Below are positions 10,553-24,467 of a stretch of 25,302 bases of DNA, piece by piece. The stretch is from IMG/VR virus record IMGVR_UViG_3300035156_000296, positions 1 to 25,302 of that record; one strand, 5' to 3'. Under the pieces are notes generated by a model, which was given only the letters and a program-made list of their open reading frames with translations, did not search any database and was not told where the DNA came from. Source of the DNA: a virus. The position numbers and the translations under genes are program-made. Each line of letters begins with the position of its first letter. The stretch's first letter is position 1.

Positions 10553-12175
10553 ATGACGACGCCAGTCTACGCACTGCCCGGCCTCCTCCGCATGGTGAAC
10601 CCCGCACTGGGCGGGTCCAGCGTCGCCTACACCACCCAGGAGGGCTTCACCTCCGTCTGGCAGGGTCTCGGCTGGGTGCTGCTCACCGAGCAGGGCACCG
10701 CGCCGCAGCCCCGGCAGCTCATGGTGGGCGTCGACACCGACCTCACCGAGGGCCAGTACCTCACGTGGGATGACACGCTGCAGCTGGTCCGGGGCACCTC
10801 GGTCGGCGGGTCGGCGGGCACCGCGTTCAACCCGCGTGGCGCCTGGACGGCGAACACCAACTACGCGGTCAACGACATCTTCACCGCGGGTGGGCGCACC
10901 TTCCGGACCAAGGTCACCCACACCTCCGGTTCGACCGCCCCCACCGCGACCAGCACGAACTGGGAGCTCTGGGCCGAGAAGGGCGCAGACGGCACCAACG
11001 GCACCAACGGGACGAACGGCACCAACGGCGCGGCGGGGGCGCAGGGGCCGGCGGGCGCGACGGGTGCCGCCGGCCCGACCGGACCAGCCGGGCTGAATTG
11101 GAAGACAGCGGCCTGGTCGGTCGGGACCGTCTACGCGGTGAACGATGCCTTCCCGTCGGCCGGGTCGTCCTTCCGGGTGAAGCTGGCGCACACCGCGTCG
11201 GGCACCGCCCCGACCGCGCTCGCCTACAGCACCACGAACTACGAGCTCATCGCGGCGAAGGGTGTCGACGGGACGGGCGGGACCGGCTCCGGGACGGCGA
11301 TCGGCACGTCCTACGCGCCCGTCTCGGGCGGCTCGATCAGCGCCACCAACGTCCAGGCCGCGCTGGAAGAGCTCGACGCGGAGAAGGTGCTCCGGAGCGA
11401 GGCGCCGGCAGTCACGTCGCTGATCCTGGCTAACACCGCCGAGACGCGGGTGGGGGTGGCGGATGTCGGCCTCGCCTCGGCGGAGGTGCCTGAGCTCACC
11501 ACGACGCTCGCGATCGGGACGTACCGGGTCTGGGGTCAGTGCTGGATCTCGGGGTCCAACAAACTGGCCGGCCTGCGGTTCGCGCTCTTCTTCCCGCTGG
11601 GCGCCAAGGGACCGTGCTCGGTCTTCGGCCCGAGCCTGAACAACACGGCCAGCTTTACCCGGGACATGGCCCCGCTGCGCGGCGCCCACACCCGCTCGAT
11701 GCCCGGCTGCGTGACCGTCAACGGCAGTGCCACGCTGACGACGGACGGCTCGTCCGGCCCCGGCGACGAGAACCGGACGGTGAGCGGTACCGGCATCCCG
11801 GCCGGAGCCCGCATCTTGACTTACGTCAGCCCGACTCAGGTTGTCATGACGGTAAACGCCACCGCGTCCGGCACGGTGCCGGTCACAGTCACCCAGCTCG
11901 ACCCGGTGACCGGCACGATCGGCAACGTCAACGGCATCGGCGGGCTGTGGCGAGCGGATTCCCTCAGCGCCACCCCCGCGGCGTCCCAGGTCCGGATGGG
12001 TGGTACGTACGGCGCGCCCGACTACACGCACACCTCGCCGATCGAAGTCAAAGGTATCCTGATACTGCCGACGGCCGGGCCGGTGGGGGTGGCGTTCACC
12101 CTGAACGAGGCCATCTCTGGGGTGCAGTGCCGCATGATCCAGGGCTCGTACCTCGACTTCAAGAAGATCGCCTGA
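10553..12175 (+). CDS. Tail fibre with collagen-like stalk and two CBM-like modules, 540 aa
   Basis: Probably a trimeric receptor-binding fibre. Residues 1-95 form an N-terminal attachment domain. Residues about 97-142 and 186-236 are two similar modules (W...Y.VND.....G..FR.K..H..G..APT......W) that resemble CBM5/12 chitin-binding modules. Between them (about 144-181) is a Gly-X-Y stretch with GTN repeats and GPAG units, a collagen-type triple-helix stalk. A short coiled coil follows (NVQAALEELDAEKVL), then a beta-rich C-terminal domain of about 250 residues that may contact the receptor. A ribosome site (GAAGGA) precedes the ATG. The stop overlaps the start of the glycosidase gene (TGATG), so the two are co-translated and may share one tail structure. 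Confidence 0.8.
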   Translation: MTTPVYALPGLLRMVNPALGGSSVAYTTQEGFTSVWQGLGWVLLTEQGTAPQPRQLMVGVDTDLTEGQYLTWDDTLQLVRGTSVGGSAGTAFNPRGAWTANTNYAVNDIFTAGGRTFRTKVTHTSGSTAPTATSTNWELWAEKGADGTNGTNGTNGTNGAAGAQGPAGATGAAGPTGPAGLNWKTAAWSVGTVYAVNDAFPSAGSSFRVKLAHTASGTAPTALAYSTTNYELIAAKGVDGTGGTGSGTAIGTSYAPVSGGSISATNVQAALEELDAEKVLRSEAPAVTSLILANTAETRVGVADVGLASAEVPELTTTLAIGTYRVWGQCWISGSNKLAGLRFALFFPLGAKGPCSVFGPSLNNTASFTRDMAPLRGAHTRSMPGCVTVNGSATLTTDGSSGPGDENRTVSGTGIPAGARILTYVSPTQVVMTVNATASGTVPVTVTQLDPVTGTIGNVNGIGGLWRADSLSATPAASQVRMGGTYGAPDYTHTSPIEVKGILILPTAGPVGVAFTLNEAISGVQCRMIQGSYLDFKKIA

Positions 12176-13803
12176 TGGCCGTCCAGACCTGGTACGAGCG
12201 GGAGCGTCGGTCCGCGGGAGTGACCCCCGACCCGCCGGACGAGCCGCCGGTAGACCCGCCGGCCGGCAACGACGAGGTCACGGTCTACAGCTGGAAGTCC
12301 GGGCCGTCCAACCAGCGGTTCGTCGGGCAGCCGAACTTCACGACGTCGCTGTACAACGGCACGCTCACCAGCCGGCCGGTCCGGTGTGACAGTTCGACCG
12401 CGAGCCGCCGGCAACGGATCGAGGGATGGGGTGGCGCGATCACCCAGTCCACGGCGATGGTGCTGATGGGCATGGCGCCGGCCGCCCGGACCGCGCTGCT
12501 GCGCTCGATCTTCCACCCCACCGACGGCGATGGCATGAACTTCGTCCGGATCTGCTTCGGGTCGAGCGACTTCGAGCTGGACGATGGCTCCCCGCCCCGC
12601 AAGGACGCGAACGGCAAGATCGTCGAGGCGTGGTCGTCGTACATCTACACTTACGACGACCTGCCGAACGGCCAGACGGACATGGACCTGAGCCAGATCA
12701 GCTTCGCTCGGGACATGGAGTACATCGTCCCGATCCTGCAGCAGATCAAGGCGCTCAACCCGAGCGTCCTGATCAAGGCGGCGCCCTGGTCGGCGCCGCG
12801 GTGGATGAAGACCGGACTACCGAACGCATACCCGAACAACTCGGAGGGCGTGCTTCAGGCAGGTATGCGCGACGTGTACGTCTCCTACCTGGTCAAGGCG
12901 TGCGCCTGGTACGAGACTAAGGGGTTGCACATCGATTACATCGCGATCCAGAACGAGCCGACCACGTCCAACCCGTGGGCCACGACCTACTACACTTGGC
13001 AGAACGCCATCCCGGTTTACGTTAAGCTCCGGGCGGCGCTCGACGCAGCAGCCGGCCAGTTGGGTGGCGCGCCGGCCAAGATCCAGTGCTTGGACAACGG
13101 CATCAACAAGATCTCCTGGGTGAACTCGATCTACGGTGACGCGGCGGCCAAGGCGGCTGTCGACGGGTCGGCGTGGCACACCTACGCGGCGAACGTGCAC
13201 ACCACCGACCTGTCCGGGCTGCACGATAACTTCCCGGGCAAGCACATGTGGCTCACCGAAGGGACACCTAGCCAGACCGCGGAGATTAGTACTGAGCTTA
13301 CTAAGATGATGGCCCTCTTCTGGCTGGGCGCGCCCCAGAACTGGTGCAAGGCGGTTATCTACTGGAACCTGGTGCTGGACCAGATCGGCGGGCCGTATTA
13401 TACCAACGGCGGCAACGGCTTCTCGCAGCCGTTCGTCACCGTGTGGGACCGGGCGGTCAACGGGCATCTGAAGGACGAGCTTAAGTACGACCCGACCTAC
13501 GCTGCGTTCCAGCACGTCGCGAAGATCAAGCAGGGCGCGTACATCGGGCCGTGCGACAACTACCCGGGTAACCCGGACGCCTACCAGACCCGAGTGACCA
13601 CGCCGCTCGACGGCTGGGACTTCCTGTTCGCCGTCAACCCGGACGGACAGCGCGTGCTCGTCTGCAACTCGAACAAGGCGAACACCACCAGCCCCGCGTT
13701 CAAGGTCATCGACCAGACCACCGGCACGAACGCGGTGAACCGGCAGTTCACGATCAACCCTGACCCGAACACGACGACCACCTACGTGTGGGCCGGGCCG
13801 TGA
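12175..13803 (+). CDS. GH30-type glycoside hydrolase, 542 aa
   Basis: Looks like a retaining glycosidase of family GH30 (glucosylceramidase or beta-1,6-glucanase type). Motifs in order: GWGGAITQSTA at residue 84, RICFGSSDFE, the APWSAPRWMKTG loop, IQNEP with the likely acid/base E261, WLTEG with the likely nucleophile E362, and YWNLVLD on the last barrel strand, followed by a small beta domain. Both catalytic glutamates are present. There is no signal peptide; residues 17-31 are a Pro/Asp-rich linker, so the first 15 residues may attach it to the virion. Coupled to the fibre gene, it is best read as a depolymerase that trims a host surface glycan. The substrate cannot be told from sequence. 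Its 3' half uses more A/T-ending codons than its neighbours. Confidence 0.82.
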   Translation: MAVQTWYERERRSAGVTPDPPDEPPVDPPAGNDEVTVYSWKSGPSNQRFVGQPNFTTSLYNGTLTSRPVRCDSSTASRRQRIEGWGGAITQSTAMVLMGMAPAARTALLRSIFHPTDGDGMNFVRICFGSSDFELDDGSPPRKDANGKIVEAWSSYIYTYDDLPNGQTDMDLSQISFARDMEYIVPILQQIKALNPSVLIKAAPWSAPRWMKTGLPNAYPNNSEGVLQAGMRDVYVSYLVKACAWYETKGLHIDYIAIQNEPTTSNPWATTYYTWQNAIPVYVKLRAALDAAAGQLGGAPAKIQCLDNGINKISWVNSIYGDAAAKAAVDGSAWHTYAANVHTTDLSGLHDNFPGKHMWLTEGTPSQTAEISTELTKMMALFWLGAPQNWCKAVIYWNLVLDQIGGPYYTNGGNGFSQPFVTVWDRAVNGHLKDELKYDPTYAAFQHVAKIKQGAYIGPCDNYPGNPDAYQTRVTTPLDGWDFLFAVNPDGQRVLVCNSNKANTTSPAFKVIDQTTGTNAVNRQFTINPDPNTTTTYVWAGP

Positions 13804-15304: not shown

Positions 15305-18043
15305 GTGCCGCTCATCCCGCTTTTGAAGCCGGCGTTCGTCAAGATTGAGACGTTGGTTAACAACTTCGACGTCAGCGTGGCTCCGCCGGCTGGCGGGTTC
15401 GTCTACGGCTCGCCGGGCGTGTCGCAGGTCAACGGCCGGCTGCGCGCCACCGAGGACACCGTCCAGACCACCGCCGGCTGGGTCAGCGGCGGTGGCTACA
15501 CTCTCGTCGAGTCGTCGGTCACCCTGCAGCTCTGGCGGCCGGTCAACGGTGGCACCACCGAGCTGTCGCTCGGGCGGTACGCGGACGGCGGCCAACGTTT
15601 GATCGTCGAGCTGTTCGCGAACGGCGAGCTGCGCAGCAGCGTGCAGGCCAACTACGGCGGTACGTACACCACGGTTGCCGCGATCCCGTCTGGCGTCTAC
15701 GTGAGGCTGTCCTGTACAGCCGGCGTCGCTCGAGCCGAGTACTCGGCGGACGGCGCGACCTGGACGACGGTCCAGACCTACGCCGCCCCGGCGTGGATGC
15801 TGGCGGACAGCTGCGAGCTCAACTTTCAGATCGCGACGTACGCCGCTGATTGGGTCTCACCGGCTTACTCCGAGTTTGACAACCTCAACGTACTGCCAGC
15901 TCCGGTTGTAACGCAGAGCGGCGCAGCGCTCCTGGAGTCCGGGTCGAGCCTGGGCGCGGCAGCGGTTCGGGCGCAGCCGGGCGCAGCAGTCCTGCAGGCG
16001 GCGTCGGCCCTGTCGGCGGCCGGGGTCCGCGGGCAGCCCGGCGCGTCGGTCCTCCAGTCCGCGACGGGCCTGGTGGCGGCCGGCGTCGTCGTCGCTGACG
16101 TCGACGGCTCCGCCCTTCTTCAGTCCGCGACTGCACTGTCTGCCGCTGGTGTCCGGACCCAGCCGGCCGGCGCGACCCTGCAGACGGCCACTGCGACCAC
16201 TGCCGCCGGAGTCGAGATCCTGGTCGGGGCGGCTGCCCTGGCCAGCTCGTCGACGTTGACGTCTGCCGGGGTCGAGGTCTTGGTGGCGGCCGGCCTCCTG
16301 GCCTCGGCCACCGCGATCACTGCGACTGGGGTGCGCGGCCAGGCGGGTGCGGCAGCTCTCGCGTCGGCGACCGCGCTCTCCGGAGCGGCGACGCGCGTCC
16401 ACCCGGTGGGTGCGGTCCTCCAGACCGACTCGGATCTGAGCGCCGACTCGGACACCACGGCCTCGGCGGCGGCCAGCCTGAGCAGCGCGACCGGCCTGAG
16501 CGCGCTCGGTCTGCGAGGCGCGACGGCGACCGCGGTCCTGGCATCCGCTACGGCGACCCTGGCCGCGGGGGCCCGCACTCACTCCGCGGCAGCGAGCCTG
16601 GCCAGCGCGACGGTGGTGTCGGCGGCCGGCGTCCGGACCCAGCCGGCGGGCTCGACCCTGGCGAGCTCCACCACGACCTCGGCTGGGGCGGTCCGCTCCC
16701 GCCCCGGGGCAGCCGGGCTGGCCAGCTCCACGGAGTTGAACGTCGAAGCGCTGCGCGGGGTGCTCGCCGTAGCTCTGCTCGAGTCCGACTCCGGCGTCAG
16801 CGCGGCCGGCGACGTGAGCGTCCCCACCCAGGGCGGGAACGCAGTCCTGACCTCCGCGACGGCGGTCATCGCCGCAGTCGTCCGGACGACCTCCGGTGCG
16901 GCGGCCCTGGTCTCGGCTTCCGTGCTCACCGGGTCGGCCGTCCGCACGACCCCCGGCTCCGCCCAGCTGAGCTCGGCTACCGCGATCGTCTCCGCGGCTG
17001 TCGTCACTCGGCACGGGGCGGTGGCGCTGGTCTCCATCACTGCGATGTCAGTCGCGGCACTGACGACCCGACTCGGGTCAGCCGCCTTGACTTCCGCTAC
17101 GAGTGTCTCGGCGGTCGGTCTTCGGGTTGTGCTCGGGTCCGTTGCGCTGGTCAGCTCCACCGACGTCCTGGTGGCGGGAGTGCGTGTCGCAGTGGTCTCG
17201 TCAACCCTGACCAGCTCCACGGCGACTTTCGCCGGTGGGCTCGTGAGTGGCGCCAGTGGGGTGGTCCTGCAGTCGGGCACTGCGCTCGTCGCTGCCGGGC
17301 TTCGGGCCACGGCCGGCGCAGCGGTTCTCGTAGCCGCGTCGAGCCTCTTTGTGAGTTCGCAGGGCCAGAGTGCGGGCGCGGCTGCCCTCGAGTCCTCCAC
17401 GACTCTTTCGTCGGCCTTCCCGGCGGTCACCGGGTACTCCGGAGCCCTGCTGGTCTCGGCCAGTGTGGCCCTCGTCGCTGTCGTGGCCACTCGGAGCGGC
17501 GCAGCGGTGCTCGTGATCGCCACCCAGACAGCCCCCGGGGCGGTCCGGGCGACCGCGGGAGCTTCGGCTCTGACGTCCGCGTCGGCTCTGGTCGCAGCCG
17601 GCGTCCGGGTGGTGCTGGCCGCTGCCGTCCTCCAGGCGGCCACGGCGACGACGTCCGCGGGGGTCCGGACCCGGCCCGGCTCCGCAGCGCTGGCCTCGAG
17701 CTCCGCGCTGGCGGTGGCGGCGCTCGTGACTCGGGTCTTCCAGGCCGCACTGGTGAGCTCCACCGAGACCACTGCCGGACCGAAGTCGACGGCAGTCGGG
17801 TCGGCCGGTCTGGAGTCGAGCACCGGGGCGTCCGTCGCCGGCCGGGTCATCCTCCCCTACTTGCTTCTCACGCTCCAGACCGGGCAGGTCGAGCTGGCCT
17901 GGGTGGCCGGCGCAGTAGCCCTCGGCTGGCGCTTCGGGACGCCCGAGTTCGGCTGGTCGACCTCTGACCCGACGCTCGGCTGGGCCACCTCACCCCCGGA
18001 GCTAGGGTACACTGTGGGGCAACCGACCTTCCAGGAGCAGTAG
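15305..18043 (+). CDS. Large repeat fibre: lectin-like head plus about 32 x 20-residue repeats, 912 aa
   Basis: Residues 1-200 are beta-rich and look like a concanavalin/LamG-type domain (NGRLRATED..., YVRLSCTAGVARAEYSADGATW, ending EFDNLNVLP). Residues about 204-848 are about 32 tandem units near 20 residues long, consensus G-A-A-x-L-x-S-A-T-x-L-S-A-A-G-V-R-x-x-P. Each unit gives two short strands with small residues, and Arg is nearly the only charge. This suggests a beta-solenoid or extended trimeric shaft. Residues about 862-912 hold a different short repeat (LGW/FGW/LGY every 9-10 residues with Pro). The DNA copies are diverged, so the array is old. Strong GGGGGG-type sequence precedes the GTG. 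The role is a long adhesin or fibre, inferred from context. Confidence 0.78.
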   Translation: MPLIPLLKPAFVKIETLVNNFDVSVAPPAGGFVYGSPGVSQVNGRLRATEDTVQTTAGWVSGGGYTLVESSVTLQLWRPVNGGTTELSLGRYADGGQRLIVELFANGELRSSVQANYGGTYTTVAAIPSGVYVRLSCTAGVARAEYSADGATWTTVQTYAAPAWMLADSCELNFQIATYAADWVSPAYSEFDNLNVLPAPVVTQSGAALLESGSSLGAAAVRAQPGAAVLQAASALSAAGVRGQPGASVLQSATGLVAAGVVVADVDGSALLQSATALSAAGVRTQPAGATLQTATATTAAGVEILVGAAALASSSTLTSAGVEVLVAAGLLASATAITATGVRGQAGAAALASATALSGAATRVHPVGAVLQTDSDLSADSDTTASAAASLSSATGLSALGLRGATATAVLASATATLAAGARTHSAAASLASATVVSAAGVRTQPAGSTLASSTTTSAGAVRSRPGAAGLASSTELNVEALRGVLAVALLESDSGVSAAGDVSVPTQGGNAVLTSATAVIAAVVRTTSGAAALVSASVLTGSAVRTTPGSAQLSSATAIVSAAVVTRHGAVALVSITAMSVAALTTRLGSAALTSATSVSAVGLRVVLGSVALVSSTDVLVAGVRVAVVSSTLTSSTATFAGGLVSGASGVVLQSGTALVAAGLRATAGAAVLVAASSLFVSSQGQSAGAAALESSTTLSSAFPAVTGYSGALLVSASVALVAVVATRSGAAVLVIATQTAPGAVRATAGASALTSASALVAAGVRVVLAAAVLQAATATTSAGVRTRPGSAALASSSALAVAALVTRVFQAALVSSTETTAGPKSTAVGSAGLESSTGASVAGRVILPYLLLTLQTGQVELAWVAGAVALGWRFGTPEFGWSTSDPTLGWATSPPELGYTVGQPTFQEQ
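18001..18020 (+). promoter_or_regulatory. Possible forward promoter -10 region (TACACT)
   Basis: GCTAGGGTA-C-ACTG-T-GGGG here nearly repeats the sequence at 5104-5122 that contains the endolysin -10. TACACT (18008-18013) would be the -10; a matching -35 is not clear (GGCCACC lies about 20 bp upstream). It overlaps the end of the long fibre gene and precedes the gene at 18045. Confidence 0.35.
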
Positions 18044-18761: not shown

Positions 18762-19103
18762 TCAGTTCGCGAGACCGTCGATCGCGTAGGGCAAGACTCC
18801 GGCGGTGAGCTCGCGGTCGGCGTCGTAGAGGTAGCCGTGCTTGGTCGCGAAGACCAGCTTCGGGGTCGCACCGAACTGCTTGCGGTTCCAACCCCAGGCG
18901 GCGGTGATGTATTCGGCCTGCTGGATCTGCTCCAGCAGGTTCGTCGCCTCGGCGCGCGGGCGGCGCACCGTGACCGACACCGACCGGTAGGCGAAGTCGT
19001 AGCCGGCATCGGGTGTGTCGGTGATCTCCACCTCGACCTCCAGGCCGGCGCGCTCCGCGCGGGCGATGAGGGTGTCGATCTTGCGGCTACCGGTGGTGGG
19101 CAT
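18762..19103 (-). CDS. Hypothetical reverse-strand protein, 113 aa
   Basis: Not recognised. Alpha/beta composition: an N-terminal helix (SRKIDTLIARAERAG), alternating strands (LEVEVEITDT, RSVSVTVRRP), a helix (ATNLLEQIQQAEY) and a C-terminal region with FATKHGYLYD. It has no membrane segment. The ATG at 19103 lies 6 nt after the -10, so the mRNA is probably leaderless. It is a lone reverse gene inside the forward structural block, next to and divergent from the MuF gene, with its own promoter: the mark of a moron-type accessory gene. Confidence 0.7.
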   Translation of the reverse strand: MPTTGSRKIDTLIARAERAGLEVEVEITDTPDAGYDFAYRSVSVTVRRPRAEATNLLEQIQQAEYITAAWGWNRKQFGATPKLVFATKHGYLYDADRELTAGVLPYAIDGLAN

Positions 19104-19147: not shown

Positions 19148-22100
19148 GTGACCCGGCCGCTCGCGGTCGACGAGGTCAGCGAAGAGCTGATCAGCGTCTA
19201 CCGGCGCGCCTGGGATCGCGTCAACGCTGAACTCCAGTCGCTGCAGCTGGACCCGCTGTCGATGCGGCGCCGGTCCCGGCTCATCGAGATGCGCCGGTCG
19301 ATCGAGGCCGTCATGGAAGGCTTGGACGAGCAGGCGGCCAAGTGGGTCGCCACCCGACTGCCCGAGGTTTACGCGCTCGGGGCGCACAGCACCGGCGCGG
19401 CGGCCATCTCGGCTGAGGGCAGCGCTATCTGGACGGCGATCCAGCAGGAGGCTGTCGAGGAGCTCGCGCAGAATCTCTTCGGCAGCCTGCTCAAGGCGAC
19501 TTCCGGGGTGAACGACGCTACCAAGGACCTCATCAACCGGGTGGCCAAGGACGAGGCGCTGCAGAAGGCGATCGAGGGTCGGACCGCGAAGCAGGCCGGC
19601 CGGGAGATGGAGCGCCTGCTGCGCAAGCAGGGGCTCAGCGCGGTAACCTACGCGAACGGCGCGGAGCACGGCCTGGCCGAGTACGCCCAGATGGCGATTC
19701 GAACGACCACCGCGACGGCCTACAACAGGGCCGCCCTCTCGGACCCGGACGTGCTCTACTACGAGGTGTTCGACGGGCTTCAGTGCGGGATGCGCACCCA
19801 CGACGACCCATGGAAGGCTCACGGCTCGATCGTGACCCGGGAGCAGGCTGGGCTCTACCTGATCAGCCACCCGAACTGCCGGCGGGCGTTCGGCGCCCGC
19901 CCCGACATCGAGGACACCGAGCAGGCCAGGAAGGCGTCCGGCTCCACCACCCAGGAGCAGGACGACTTCCAGCTGGCCCGGGAGCGGGGTTACGACAAGG
20001 CCGCCCCGGACGAGCGCGCCTCGGCTGAGCCGGACGCGCCCCGGACGATCACCCGGCTCGAGGCCGACCCGGCAACGATCCAGCGCGAGCTGGACCTACT
20101 GGAGATGCGCCTAAAGGCCGCCCCCGGTGGCGGTGCTCGAGCCCGCATCAAGCGGCAGATCGAGGTCAAGCGCGCGGAGCTGGAGCGCGCGACGCGCGTC
20201 GATCCGCCCGATCTGCCCGTCCTCCCGGACCCGCGGATCGCCACCCTGGAGGGGGAGATCGAGCAGCTGCGGGTCAAGCTGAAGGCCGCTGCCGGTGGTC
20301 GGGCGCGAGCGAAGGTCAAGGCGGAGATCGCCGACCGGGAGCGCGAGCTCTCCGAGCTGCGGCGCGACACGAAGCCCGACCCCGAGCTGGACCCGCCCCG
20401 GCCGCCCCCGCCACCGGACCCGACCCCGCCCCCGGTCGAGGGGGTCGGCAAGGAGATCGGCGGCAAGCGGAGCTCGCTGTACACCGACGAGGAGCTGGCC
20501 AAGCAGCTCAAGGCGGAGCACAAGTTTTGGACCAACGACAAGCTCCGCAACGAGCTGCTGGGCCTCCGTCTGGCCGAGATCCCGGACGCGATCTCGATCC
20601 GAAAGGCGCACCCGGGCTGGACCACCAAGGTTGCGGAGCGCAACCGCGAGAAGCAGATCGCGGACCTGCGCGCCCGGCTGGGCTTCGACGGCGGGCCGCC
20701 CCCGGTCGTCAAGCCCGACCCGGACCCGGACCGCCGGGTGGAGCCGAAGCCGAAGCCCGAGCCGGACCCTCCCCCGCCCCCGCCGGAGACGGACAGCTCG
20801 ATCTACGCGTCGGCCACGATCGACACCCGCGTGAAGGCGTTCGCGGAGGCGAACGGTGCGTACCTGGAGCGGGTGCTGGGCGACTCACTCGTGCCCATCG
20901 TGCCCGCCGATACCAAGCAGGACCTGTACCGCGCGTTCGCCCGCGCCAAGCGGGACAACCTCGACCTCCTGGAGAAGTACCCGGCTCTCTACACTCCGGA
21001 CGGCCGGGCCAAGGAGATCGGGAGCCTGGCCGAGTACGCGGAGCACAAGAGGCAGCTTGCGCGCCTGGTGGCGGAGTCCAAGGCCGACATCAAGGCGAAC
21101 GGCGTCGGCAACTGGGGCTACGAGCTGCGGTACACCCGGCCGGAGAACGCCTACACCAACCCGAAGGGCATCGACGCCAAGATCCGGAAGGCGCTGCAGG
21201 ACCGGGTCAGCGACCCGGTCGGCGCGGACGGCATGGAGCGCATCTGGGGCACACCGGACGCTCACTCGCGGCAGCTGGACGCGAAGAAGATCGACGAGGC
21301 CATCAAGTGGTACGGCTCTATGATGTCGAAGAAGGCGGCTGCCACCTGGCAGCGGCACGACCCGGCCAACACGCCGCTGGCCTTCGAGCCCGGGAAGCTG
21401 CGGGGCACCGTGCAGCTCCGGGCTAAGCACCCCGTCCTGCCGATGAGGATGAAGTTTGGTTCGACGGCGGCGAGCAAGAAGCGCGCCTACTACCAGGGTC
21501 GGGTCGTCTACGGCGGCAACTCACCGACCCGAACGGTCGTCCACGAAATGGGCCACGGCTGGGAGAACACGCTGGGGGCGCCATCGTCCTGGTCTAGTCA
21601 GGGTCCGAGGTCCAAGCTCCAGGAGGACGCCAAGGCCTTCCTCCGGTACCGCCAGGGCAAGGAGAGCGCCTCGCAGATCTACCCGGGCCGCAAGGGGCTG
21701 GAGGACGAGATCGGCGTGAAGGACGACTTCCTCGAGCACTACATGGGCAAGTACTACCGGAACGACACCGAGCTGATCGCGATGGGCATGGAGCTCATGT
21801 ACGCCGAGCCCGCCCGGCTCCTGTTCGGCGACCCGGAGATGTTCCACTGGATCGCCGGCATCCTCCAGGGCGAGATCACGAACGGCGTCAGCTCCGGCGT
21901 CGTCCGCGAGGCGCGGCTGGCCCGGGCCGGTGGCGACGCAGCTGAGAGGGCGGCGAAGGCGGCGAAGGCAGCGGCCGAGAAGGCGGCGGCGGACGAGGCG
22001 ACGAGGCGCGCGGTGATCGCCAAGCGCGAGGCTCGGCTGGCAGCCGAGAAGGCTGCCCGCGAAGCCGCCGAAAGGGCCGCGAAAGAGGCGGCGGCGAAGG

Positions 22101-22972
22101 CGGCGCGCGAAGCCGCCGAGCGGGCAGCGCGGACCGACGGCGGGCTCGCGGAGGCCTACGCCAAGGGCTTCACGAGTGACCGGACCCTGAACGGGGGCAA
22201 CGTCGGGCTGGAGGTCCGCATTGTCACTCTGTCGGACGGTCGGAAGGCTGTCGTCAAGACGATGAGCACGGAAGCCGAAGCGGCTAAGGAGATCGGCGCG
22301 GCCAACCTCTACGAGGCGCTGGGGGGCACGGGCTTCCGGGCCGAACGTCTGCCCGACGACGCAGGCGGCAACCCCCGGGTGGTCATGCCCTTCGTCGAGG
22401 GCGAGACGGGCGGTAGGGCGATGGTCCGCTTCGTGGACGAGGAGCGGGCGCGCCTCGGCCCCCAAGGGTTCTACGCCAAGTACATCGACCCGACCTCCCG
22501 CAGGCAGGGGATGGCCAACATCAACGCTCAGAAGGTGGAGGAGCAGCGGCAGATCGAATCCGAGAACGGGCTCCAGATCGCGATTCTCGACCACGTCATC
22601 GTGAACTACGACCGCCACTCTGGTAACTGGATGGTGCGGGGCGACCGGGTCATCCCGATCGACCACGGCAACGCCCAGTTCGAGGCGATGGGTGCGGGCG
22701 GTCTCCTCCGGACCTCCGGGTCTCCGTTCGCAGACTACTGGCTCGGGATCAAGACCAACCGCAACGGCGACCTGTCGCAGCTGCGCCCCAAGTTCAACCG
22801 AGCGCAGTGGGAGCCGCTGCGCGACCGGATGCTCGCCGCGATCGACCGGGACTACCCGGTGGGCCGGCCCGGACCCGTCACCGAGGACGACTGGGGGCAC
22901 AAGCTGAACCCGGACTACCGCAAGGGTCTGCTAGACCGCATCCGCCAGATCGACGAGAAGGTGAAGAAGTGA
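19148..22972 (+). CDS. MuF-type head protein fused to HExxH protease-like and kinase-like domains, 1274 aa
   Basis: The N-terminal about 250 residues match MuF/minor-head proteins: C213 in CGMRTHDD and the closing ISHPNCRRAFGARP (H241, C244). Two related coiled-coil units (about residues 310-400) and two Pro-rich linkers (about 414-437 and 522-553) follow. A helical region leads to TVVHEMGHGWE: HEMGH at 799-803 with a likely third zinc ligand E875 (TELIAMGMEL), as in gluzincins. An Ala/Lys/Glu coiled coil (about 932-995) links to a PI3/4-kinase-like domain: K1037 (AVVKTM), D1155-RHSGN1160 and D1172-HG. GTG 19148 is chosen; the open frame reaches a TTG at 19124, but that lies in the operator. 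As a MuF protein it should be packaged with the head and could be injected with DNA. Confidence 0.8.
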   Translation: MTRPLAVDEVSEELISVYRRAWDRVNAELQSLQLDPLSMRRRSRLIEMRRSIEAVMEGLDEQAAKWVATRLPEVYALGAHSTGAAAISAEGSAIWTAIQQEAVEELAQNLFGSLLKATSGVNDATKDLINRVAKDEALQKAIEGRTAKQAGREMERLLRKQGLSAVTYANGAEHGLAEYAQMAIRTTTATAYNRAALSDPDVLYYEVFDGLQCGMRTHDDPWKAHGSIVTREQAGLYLISHPNCRRAFGARPDIEDTEQARKASGSTTQEQDDFQLARERGYDKAAPDERASAEPDAPRTITRLEADPATIQRELDLLEMRLKAAPGGGARARIKRQIEVKRAELERATRVDPPDLPVLPDPRIATLEGEIEQLRVKLKAAAGGRARAKVKAEIADRERELSELRRDTKPDPELDPPRPPPPPDPTPPPVEGVGKEIGGKRSSLYTDEELAKQLKAEHKFWTNDKLRNELLGLRLAEIPDAISIRKAHPGWTTKVAERNREKQIADLRARLGFDGGPPPVVKPDPDPDRRVEPKPKPEPDPPPPPPETDSSIYASATIDTRVKAFAEANGAYLERVLGDSLVPIVPADTKQDLYRAFARAKRDNLDLLEKYPALYTPDGRAKEIGSLAEYAEHKRQLARLVAESKADIKANGVGNWGYELRYTRPENAYTNPKGIDAKIRKALQDRVSDPVGADGMERIWGTPDAHSRQLDAKKIDEAIKWYGSMMSKKAAATWQRHDPANTPLAFEPGKLRGTVQLRAKHPVLPMRMKFGSTAASKKRAYYQGRVVYGGNSPTRTVVHEMGHGWENTLGAPSSWSSQGPRSKLQEDAKAFLRYRQGKESASQIYPGRKGLEDEIGVKDDFLEHYMGKYYRNDTELIAMGMELMYAEPARLLFGDPEMFHWIAGILQGEITNGVSSGVVREARLARAGGDAAERAAKAAKAAAEKAAADEATRRAVIAKREARLAAEKAAREAAERAAKEAAAKAAREAAERAARTDGGLAEAYAKGFTSDRTLNGGNVGLEVRIVTLSDGRKAVVKTMSTEAEAAKEIGAANLYEALGGTGFRAERLPDDAGGNPRVVMPFVEGETGGRAMVRFVDEERARLGPQGFYAKYIDPTSRRQGMANINAQKVEEQRQIESENGLQIAILDHVIVNYDRHSGNWMVRGDRVIPIDHGNAQFEAMGAGGLLRTSGSPFADYWLGIKTNRNGDLSQLRPKFNRAQWEPLRDRMLAAIDRDYPVGRPGPVTEDDWGHKLNPDYRKGLLDRIRQIDEKVKK

Positions 22973-23163
22973 ACAAGAAGGTAGAGTTCCGAGACGACAC
23001 GGGCTTGGTCGGCGCCGTCTACGTCACCGACGAGCTGGTCGCCGACACGGCGATCCAGAGCCTGGTGGACGCCTGGACGCGAATGCGCCGCACCCCGGCG
23101 GAGTTCGTCAAGTACTACGACGGCTGGTCGAACGGCTACCTGACGTCCCGGGTGGCGGGGTAG
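22969..23163 (+). CDS. Small hypothetical protein, 64 aa
   Basis: GTG overlaps the MuF stop (GTGA), so it is translationally coupled to it. Acidic start (VEFRDDTGLVGAVYVTDEL), helical middle (IQSLVDAWTRMRRTPAEFVKYYDGW). Being coupled to a protein with enzyme domains, it could be a partner, chaperone or inhibitor of that protein; this is inference from position only. Not recognised. Confidence 0.6.
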   Translation: MNKKVEFRDDTGLVGAVYVTDELVADTAIQSLVDAWTRMRRTPAEFVKYYDGWSNGYLTSRVAG

Positions 23164-23172
23164 GGTGGCGTT

Positions 23173-23424
23173 GTGGAGATCGCAGTCAGCGTCGGCGGAG
23201 AGCCCCTCGGGGTTGTCTGCATTGACACGCACGGCCGATGTGGGGCCGACACCCCGGAGCTCGACTGGCTCGCCGTTGAGGGTGAGGCAGCCTTCTACGC
23301 CGGACCACCTCCCTGGGTCCCTGCGGTCGAGCGGATCCTCCGCGAAGCCTACGTCGCGGGTTACGACACCAAGACGTCAGGCGAGATCACACCCGTGGAC
23401 CTCCCAGAAGGAGCGATAGCCTGA
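23173..23424 (+). CDS. Hypothetical protein, 83 aa
   Basis: Not recognised. Beta-rich first half (MEIAVSVGGEPLGVVCIDT), then DWLAVEGEAAFYAGPPPWV and a helix (AVERILREAYVAGYD). GTG start with only a weak GGGTGG upstream. It may belong to the head-tail module or accompany the MuF protein. Confidence 0.58.
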   Translation: MEIAVSVGGEPLGVVCIDTHGRCGADTPELDWLAVEGEAAFYAGPPPWVPAVERILREAYVAGYDTKTSGEITPVDLPEGAIA

Positions 23425-23639
23425 TGCTTGGACCTGAGCTTGGCGGCATGACGCTGGAGTCCACCGCTCCCACGCTGGACGAGGGCGCGGCGTGGGGCTT
23501 TGTCCGCGACTTCCTTGACTCGGTAGACCCGGAGGCGCTGGAAACGTCCGCACTGCGCCGGGTCGGCGGGCTCGAGGGCGAGGACTCGATCGGGCAGTGC
23601 TTCCTCGAAGCGCTCAAGGACGAGGCCCATGGCCACTAG
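23424..23639 (+). CDS. Small acidic hypothetical protein, 71 aa
   Basis: ATG overlaps the previous stop (TGATG) and has a strong AGAAGGAG upstream (about 23405-23412). Acidic, helical protein (WGFVRDFLDSVDPEAL...). Its end overlaps the start of the next gene by 11 bases. Not recognised. Confidence 0.6.
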   Translation: MLGPELGGMTLESTAPTLDEGAAWGFVRDFLDSVDPEALETSALRRVGGLEGEDSIGQCFLEALKDEAHGH

Positions 23640-24045: not shown

Positions 24046-24467
24046 TGCAGCGTGACATCCACGCCACCGGGATCGCCGAGCTCCAGCGCCTGCTCGCCCG
24101 CGGCCAGGTCACGGTCAAGCGGGAGACCGCCCGGATCACGAAGAAGCACGGCTCGCTGCTGGTGACCAAGATCCGGGCGCGCGCCTCCGGGCGCCCCGGG
24201 CCGGGCGTCGTGACCGGCGACTACCGCCGGTCCTGGGGGTCGACCTACCGCGCGACCCCGGACCCCAGTGCGACCGTCGGCACGAACGCTCCGCAAGCTC
24301 GCCGGCTCGAGTACGGCTTCACCGGCCGGGACTCGCTGGGCCGGCACTACGCCCAGCCCCCGCTCCCGCACGTCGCCCCGGCTGTCCAGGAGACCGAGGC
24401 GGAGTACAAGGAAGAGCTGCGGCGCATGGCCGCCCGGATCGACTCCGCTGTGGCGTACCGACCGTGA
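24045..24467 (+). CDS. HK97 gp10-like neck/tail-completion protein, 140 aa
   Basis: N-terminal helix (IAELQRLLARG), basic helix, VVTGDYRRSWG, ATVGTNAPQARRLEYGFTGRDSLGRHY, QPPLPHVAPAVQ and a C-terminal helix. This TG.YR.SW / VGT..P.A..LE.G / PHxxPA order is typical of HK97 gp10-type neck proteins. ATG overlaps the previous stop (TGATG). Confidence 0.78.
   Translation: MQRDIHATGIAELQRLLARGQVTVKRETARITKKHGSLLVTKIRARASGRPGPGVVTGDYRRSWGSTYRATPDPSATVGTNAPQARRLEYGFTGRDSLGRHYAQPPLPHVAPAVQETEAEYKEELRRMAARIDSAVAYRP

What the first reader, a model, noticed from the sequence alone, without database searches (positions are those of the whole stretch)
19148..22972. Virion MuF protein carrying a zincin and a PI3/4-kinase-like domain
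A single 1274-residue reading frame joins a MuF minor-head domain, coiled coils and Pro-rich linkers, an HEMGH zincin with a candidate third ligand E875, and a kinase-like domain with K1037, D1155, N1160 and D1172. Polymorphic toxins attached to MuF are established in temperate phages, but this protease-plus-kinase pair on one chain is not one I recognise. It suggests enzymes preloaded in the head and delivered with the genome, where the protease might release the kinase or disable a host target.
Basis: partly seen in the sequence, partly recalled or inferred. Interest (0 to 1): 0.88.

Follow-up and report, generated by a model that had tools for sequence, protein, structure and literature searches.

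The report
Phage head protein with protease and kinase

Summary
One open frame (19148-22972, 1274 aa) joins a MuF minor-head domain (Pfam PF06152, PHROG 'minor head'), Pro-rich linkers, an HEMGH zincin and a C-terminal kinase-like domain (Pfam PF00454, 6.7e-8). Codon-position G+C is that of coding DNA throughout. AlphaFold models resemble zincins (PPEP-1, lethal factor) and atypical kinases (CtkA, Fam20, type II PI4K, HipA).

Each half is a recurrent phage payload. The zincin ends 116 distinct ORFs, about half of those scanned having a Pfam MuF domain; the kinase sits on portal, MuF and other head proteins. Neither appears with the other on one chain outside this window. One other phage type encodes the zincin near a weaker kinase-like ORF, both with a shared leader. 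A syntenic Streptomyces phage (ZL12) has a short MuF without payload.

So this is a new combination inside the known class of MuF toxins and polyvalent injected proteins. The kinase type is not mentioned in the two surveys' main texts. Substrates, self-cleavage and delivery are inferred, not shown.

The parts
19148..22972 (+). Whole gene: 1274-aa MuF-zincin-kinase protein (GTG start)
19148..19930 (+). MuF minor-head domain, residues 1-261 (ends with HPNCRR motif)
   Evidence: PF06152, PHROG 4611/581/37388; 34% identity to Streptomyces phage ZL12 pZL12.60c over 96 aa
20372..20443 (+). Pro-rich linker 1, residues 409-432 (KPDPELDPPRPPPPPDPTPPPVEG)
   Evidence: sequence
20693..20788 (+). Pro-rich linker 2, residues 516-547
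   Evidence: sequence
21440..21871 (+). Zincin metallopeptidase core, residues 765-908
21542..21556 (+). HEMGH active-site motif, residues 799-803
   Evidence: invariant in relatives
21770..21772 (+). E875, predicted third zinc ligand
   Evidence: 113/113 conserved
21920..22141 (+). Ala/Lys/Glu-rich stretch joining zincin to kinase, residues 925-998, probably a long helix
   Evidence: sequence; not modelled
22145..22969 (+). PI3/4-kinase-like domain, residues 1000-1274
   Evidence: PF00454; profile match to type II PI4K 2e-16; fold
22256..22258 (+). K1037, predicted ATP-binding lysine
22610..22627 (+). DRHSGN catalytic loop, residues 1155-1160
22661..22663 (+). D1172, metal-binding Asp (IDHG, counterpart of DFG)
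22969..23163 (+). 64-aa ORF whose GTG overlaps the stop codon of the MuF gene; candidate partner or immunity protein, function unknown
   Evidence: no relatives

Best explanation
The protein is a capsid-borne, multi-enzyme effector. Its MuF domain docks it at the portal inside the head (known for MuF proteins; inferred here). Pro-rich and helical linkers hold two enzymes that could be threaded out with the DNA (inferred). In the new host a zinc metallopeptidase and an atypical kinase of the type II PI4K/Fam20/HipA-like group act on host components early in infection (inferred). The kinase most likely phosphorylates a host protein, by analogy with HipA and T7 kinase. The zincin either cuts a host protein or cuts the chain in the linkers and frees the enzymes from the capsid anchor. 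Shown here: the domains, their conserved active sites, their repeated linkage to head proteins, and that the syntenic MuF of phage ZL12 has no payload, so the enzymes look like an addition to a standard head protein.
For: Domains and catalytic residues. Folds. Zincin ends 116 distinct ORFs (median tail after the domain 2 aa, max 65); 25 of 51 relatives scanned carry PF04233 MuF. All 13 viral kinase relatives match PF00454; several sit on MuF, portal or head-morphogenesis proteins. Payload logic: PaV-LD has two zincin ORFs and an ART ORF; one zincin ORF and the ART ORF were compared and share a leader; L133/L134 has zincin, ART and kinase-like+ART ORFs close together, the zincin and kinase-like ones with a shared leader; several copies per phage. 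ZL12 short MuF in a shared head module. Precedent: MuF toxins, 20% with metallopeptidase domains (PMC5576092) and polyvalent proteins (PMC5512222).
Against: No virion proteomics or activity data. The window is a 25-kb fragment without a known host or lifestyle. Kinase model pLDDT is only 60; zincin Foldseek hits in PDB are not significant on their own. No immunity gene could be recognised. No second genome carries the same two-enzyme chain, so selection on the combination cannot be tested.
Confidence: 0.6

Rival explanations
1. The zincin is a head-internal processing protease: it trims the MuF protein or other head proteins during assembly, and only the kinase (or nothing) is delivered.
For: The zincin is commonly carried by MuF and other head proteins; P1 DdrB is cleaved before packaging (PMC5512222).
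Against: It is present in several copies in some phages (PaV-LD two, G040 three including a weak one) and on non-MuF leaders shared with ART enzymes, which fits payloads better than a maturation enzyme; it sits at the C-terminus in all 116 other ORFs, with nothing behind it to release; ZL12 has a short MuF without it.
Confidence: 0.2
2. The kinase is a true lipid kinase that phosphorylates host phosphatidylinositol, a major lipid of many actinobacteria, and so alters the membrane or its signalling.
For: Best sequence profile match is type II phosphatidylinositol 4-kinase, 2e-16; the phage's relatives infect actinobacteria; that actinobacteria contain phosphatidylinositol is general knowledge.
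Against: Structure matches to CtkA and Fam20, which include protein kinases, are as good (Z 12.7, 12.6 against 12.0); members of the family also occur in contigs from Bdellovibrionales and Armatimonadetes.
Confidence: 0.1
3. The fusion is an accident of this one genome or an assembly chimera of a MuF-zincin gene and a kinase gene.
For: No second example of the same chain; the two domains are joined by a low-complexity Ala-rich stretch, where mis-joins can arise.
Against: The frame stays open and the codon-position G+C and codon usage stay phage-like on both sides of the junction; zincin and kinase keep their active-site residues.
Confidence: 0.08

Closest known systems
MuF polymorphic toxins of temperate phages (Jamet et al. 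2017, PMC5576092)
   Same: MuF minor-head domain with a C-terminal enzymatic extension; 20% of their MuF toxins have a metallopeptidase domain
   Different: Two enzymes on one chain, one of them a kinase ('kinase' does not occur in that paper's main text); lifestyle of this phage unknown; no recognised immunity gene
Polyvalent proteins of phages (Iyer et al. 2017, PMC5512222)
   Same: Several unrelated enzymes on one late-gene polypeptide, zincin-like peptidase as the commonest domain, also related to lethal factor
   Different: Their kinases are a truncated Ser/Thr/Tyr group without the C-lobe; PI3/4K- or HipA-like kinases are not named in the main text
Flavobacterium phage pippi8-1 gp028
   Same: MuF (PF04233 2.6e-14) plus the same C-terminal zincin
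   Different: 537 aa, no kinase; phage grouped with lytic phages by its authors (PMC7077304)
Microbacterium phage Pumpernickel gp82
   Same: Long protein two genes downstream of the portal, ending in the same kinase domain
   Different: 2235 aa, no MuF or zincin match
PPEP-1/Zmp1 Pro-Pro endopeptidases and lethal factor catalytic fold (MEROPS M34)
   Same: Best structural matches of the zincin model, Z 9.2 and 8.5
   Different: No sequence-level match; Pro-Pro linkers are not conserved in relatives
Type II PI4-kinases, Fam20 kinases, H. pylori CtkA, HipA
   Same: Sequence profile (2e-16 PI4K2B, 4e-10 to 7e-5 Fam20) and fold (Z 12.7-10.9)
   Different: Phage-borne, fused to a capsid protein; substrate unknown

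Membership tests
MuF polymorphic toxins | MuF domain | tested here: met
   PF06152 above gathering, PHROG minor head families
MuF polymorphic toxins | C-terminal extension of 100 aa or more with an enzymatic domain | tested here: met
   about 1000 aa with zincin and kinase
MuF polymorphic toxins | small downstream ORF as candidate immunity gene | tested here: inconclusive
   64-aa ORF overlaps the stop, two more small ORFs follow; no relatives or families
MuF polymorphic toxins | temperate phage | not testable with these tools
   25-kb fragment; lifestyle was not determined
Polyvalent proteins | two or more unrelated enzymes on one polypeptide encoded among virion genes | tested here: met
   zincin and kinase between head and tail genes
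Polyvalent proteins | delivery into the host with the DNA | not testable with these tools
   needs virion and infection experiments
Zincin metallopeptidases | HExxH plus a downstream Glu ligand | tested here: met
   H799, E800, H803 and E875 conserved in 112-113 of 113; zinc geometry not measured
Zincin metallopeptidases | zincin fold | tested here: met
   AF2 core mostly pLDDT 80-92; VIA top rows are zincins, Z up to 9.2; Foldseek alone not significant
M34 / PPEP | cleavage between two prolines | not testable with these tools
   specificity needs an assay
PI3/PI4 kinase family (PF00454) | profile match above the curated cut-off | tested here: met
   33.2 bits against 27.1
PI3/PI4 kinase family (PF00454) | catalytic Lys, DRHxxN loop and DxG metal site | tested here: met
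   K1037, D1155-N1160, D1172-G1174
PI3/PI4 kinase family (PF00454) | phosphoinositide as substrate | not testable with these tools
   Fam20 and CtkA match equally well by fold
HipA toxins | adjacent HipB-type antitoxin | tested here: inconclusive
   small downstream ORFs match no Pfam family; other neighbours not searched for antitoxins

The most novel reading that the evidence does not exclude
A two-stage weapon in a capsid: the zincin cuts its own chain (perhaps in the Pro-rich linkers) after injection and frees a type II PI4K/Fam20/HipA-like kinase that shuts down or rewires a host pathway; this kinase group is a previously undescribed, widespread class of phage head-borne effectors.
Probability: 0.2. 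Interest if true: 0.82.

Novelty: new variant of a known kind. Interest (0 to 1): 0.6.

Why it matters
It shows that PI4K-II/Fam20/HipA-like kinases are recurrent payloads of phage head proteins, a class absent from the main texts of the two surveys of such effectors that were read, and gives one chain on which protease release of a kinase can be tested directly. A confirmed case would add this kinase group to the enzymes that phages inject with their DNA and could point to early host targets.

Tried and rejected
Searching the whole chain, the MuF part or the kinase alone in IMG/VR gave no confirmed relatives; alignments of distant homologues were needed. Foldseek with the zincin model found nothing significant in PDB. 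Profile search of PDB with the zincin alignment found no convincing sequence relative. Pro-Pro self-cleavage as a family-wide rule was rejected: many relatives have no Pro-Pro upstream of the zincin. The small ORFs behind the gene had no convincing relatives among the fetched loci and no Pfam family; the first had none in the phage collection. Literature searches found no paper on PI3/4K-like kinases in phage head proteins; most subscription papers are not held.

Full report
1. Observation. The ORF at 19148-22972 is real: one frame of 1274 aa, GTG start with AAGG seven bases before it, and codon-position G+C (0.63-0.82 / 0.44-0.68 / 0.86-0.94) like that of portal and major capsid genes along its whole length, including both sides of the zincin-kinase junction. 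The record is a 25.3-kb IMG/VR virus contig with portal, scaffold, major capsid protein, LGFP-type endolysin and tail genes. Its capsid protein is nearest to Streptomyces phages VWB and SF1 (about 42% identity), so the host is probably an actinomycete (inference).

2. Domains. Pfam gives PF06152 (phage minor capsid protein 2, 3.1e-6) at 66-195 and PF00454 (PI3/PI4 kinase, 6.7e-8) at 1144-1180, both above their curated cut-offs. PHROGs add 'minor head protein' families and, for 785-905, PHROG 33618 (1.5e-12). The MuF part resembles the 277-aa pZL12.60c of Streptomyces phage ZL12 (34% over 96 aa, E 2e-11 pairwise). The two phages share portal (40%), MCP (30%), the small gene before MuF (46%), MuF and the gene at 24464, in the same order. 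ZL12's MuF has no payload, so about 1000 aa were added to a standard short MuF here (or lost there).

3. Zincin. Alignments seeded from phages pippi8-1, PaV-LD and Javan514 fetched 69 and then 79 loci, which overlap. A local profile finds 116 distinct ORFs; the domain is always at the C-terminus (median tail 2 aa, max 65), whereas in the window about 365 aa follow it. H799, E800, H803, Y865, G867, Y870 and E875 are conserved in 112-113 of 113. Of 51 relatives scanned, 25 have the MuF family PF04233. The AF2 model (52 sequences; core mostly pLDDT 80-92) is nearest to the Pro-Pro endopeptidase PPEP-1 (Z 9.2) and lethal factor (Z 8.5) in the VIA second look; Foldseek alone was not significant against PDB but found other phage proteins in BFVD, the best at 6e-9.

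4. Kinase. An alignment with Pumpernickel gp82 fetched 13 viral loci and, later, 3 in bacterial MAGs. All 13 viral ones match PF00454. Catalytic residues are conserved. A 17-sequence profile finds type II PI4-kinases in PDB at 2e-16, Fam20 proteins at 4e-10 to 7e-5, PI4K alpha at 5e-3 and CtkA at 0.017. The AF2 model (mean pLDDT 60) matches CtkA (Z 12.7), Fam20 (12.6), PI4K II (12.0) and HipA (10.9); the first three are tied. Substrate type therefore cannot be read from homology. Carriers include MuF, portal and head-morphogenesis proteins. One contig has six copies, four in one ORF.

5. Combination. No ORF other than the window's has both domains. Fifty zincin records contain no kinase match and fourteen kinase records no zincin match (positive controls). 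Many of these records are fragments, so absence is weak evidence. Two loci with the same matches, L133 and L134, encode the zincin, an ART-like ORF and a weaker kinase-like domain (1.2e-5) fused to an ART domain close together; the zincin and kinase-like ORFs share a 52%-identical leader. PaV-LD repeats the pattern with an ART ORF and a zincin ORF behind a common leader. These enzymes behave as interchangeable cassettes on head or tag carriers.

6. Mechanism. Best reading: a head-loaded, injected two-enzyme effector. Shown: domains, active-site conservation, repeated linkage to head proteins. Inferred: packaging, injection, host targets, self-cleavage. The zincin's terminal place in relatives argues against an ancestral role in releasing something behind it; release from the MuF anchor or attack on a host protein both remain open.

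7. Known context. Jamet et al. (PMC5576092) describe MuF toxins, 20% with metallopeptidase domains; Iyer et al. (PMC5512222) describe polyvalent proteins with zincins and a different kinase group. The present protein fits both classes. New are the kinase group as a head-borne payload and its pairing with the zincin. pippi8-1, grouped with lytic phages by its authors (PMC7077304), carries MuF-zincin, so this payload is not confined to temperate phages if that is right.

8. Limits. Collections may omit near relatives of the window; IMG/VR scans used short conserved patterns and so miss divergent members; supplements of the two surveys were not available, so the kinase may be listed there.

Noticed in passing
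L010 (and L091), IMGVR_UViG_3300045011_000017: Six copies of the PI3/4K-like kinase domain in one phage contig, four of them in a single 1560-aa ORF.
   Followed up: partly
L133:4984-10300 (same matches in L134): ORFs with zincin, ART (DRAT) and kinase-like+ART domains lie close together; the zincin and kinase-like ORFs share a leader AGGPGSGCHGPNCGRPPG, which may be a head-loading tag.
   Followed up: partly
L002:3406-7532 (PaV-LD ORF079-081): An ART protein and two zincin proteins encoded side by side; the ART and one zincin were compared and share a KPQCVKPTxYNCGxACIN leader, and the third shows a similar one by eye.
   Followed up: partly
window 18762-19103, - strand: 113-aa antisense ORF directly before the MuF gene, with the only promoter-like site of the region (19138-19110, -) in front of it; a moron-like gene, possibly a regulator or immunity gene.
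   Followed up: partly
window 22969-23639: Three small ORFs (64, 83, 71 aa) between the MuF gene and the gene at 23629, no Pfam match and no convincing relatives among the fetched loci.
   Followed up: partly
window 12170-13803: GH30/GH59 glycosidase domain in a tail-region protein.
   Followed up: no
window 15305-18043: 912-aa protein made of many Ala/Ser-rich near-repeats, probably a tail or fibre protein.
   Followed up: no
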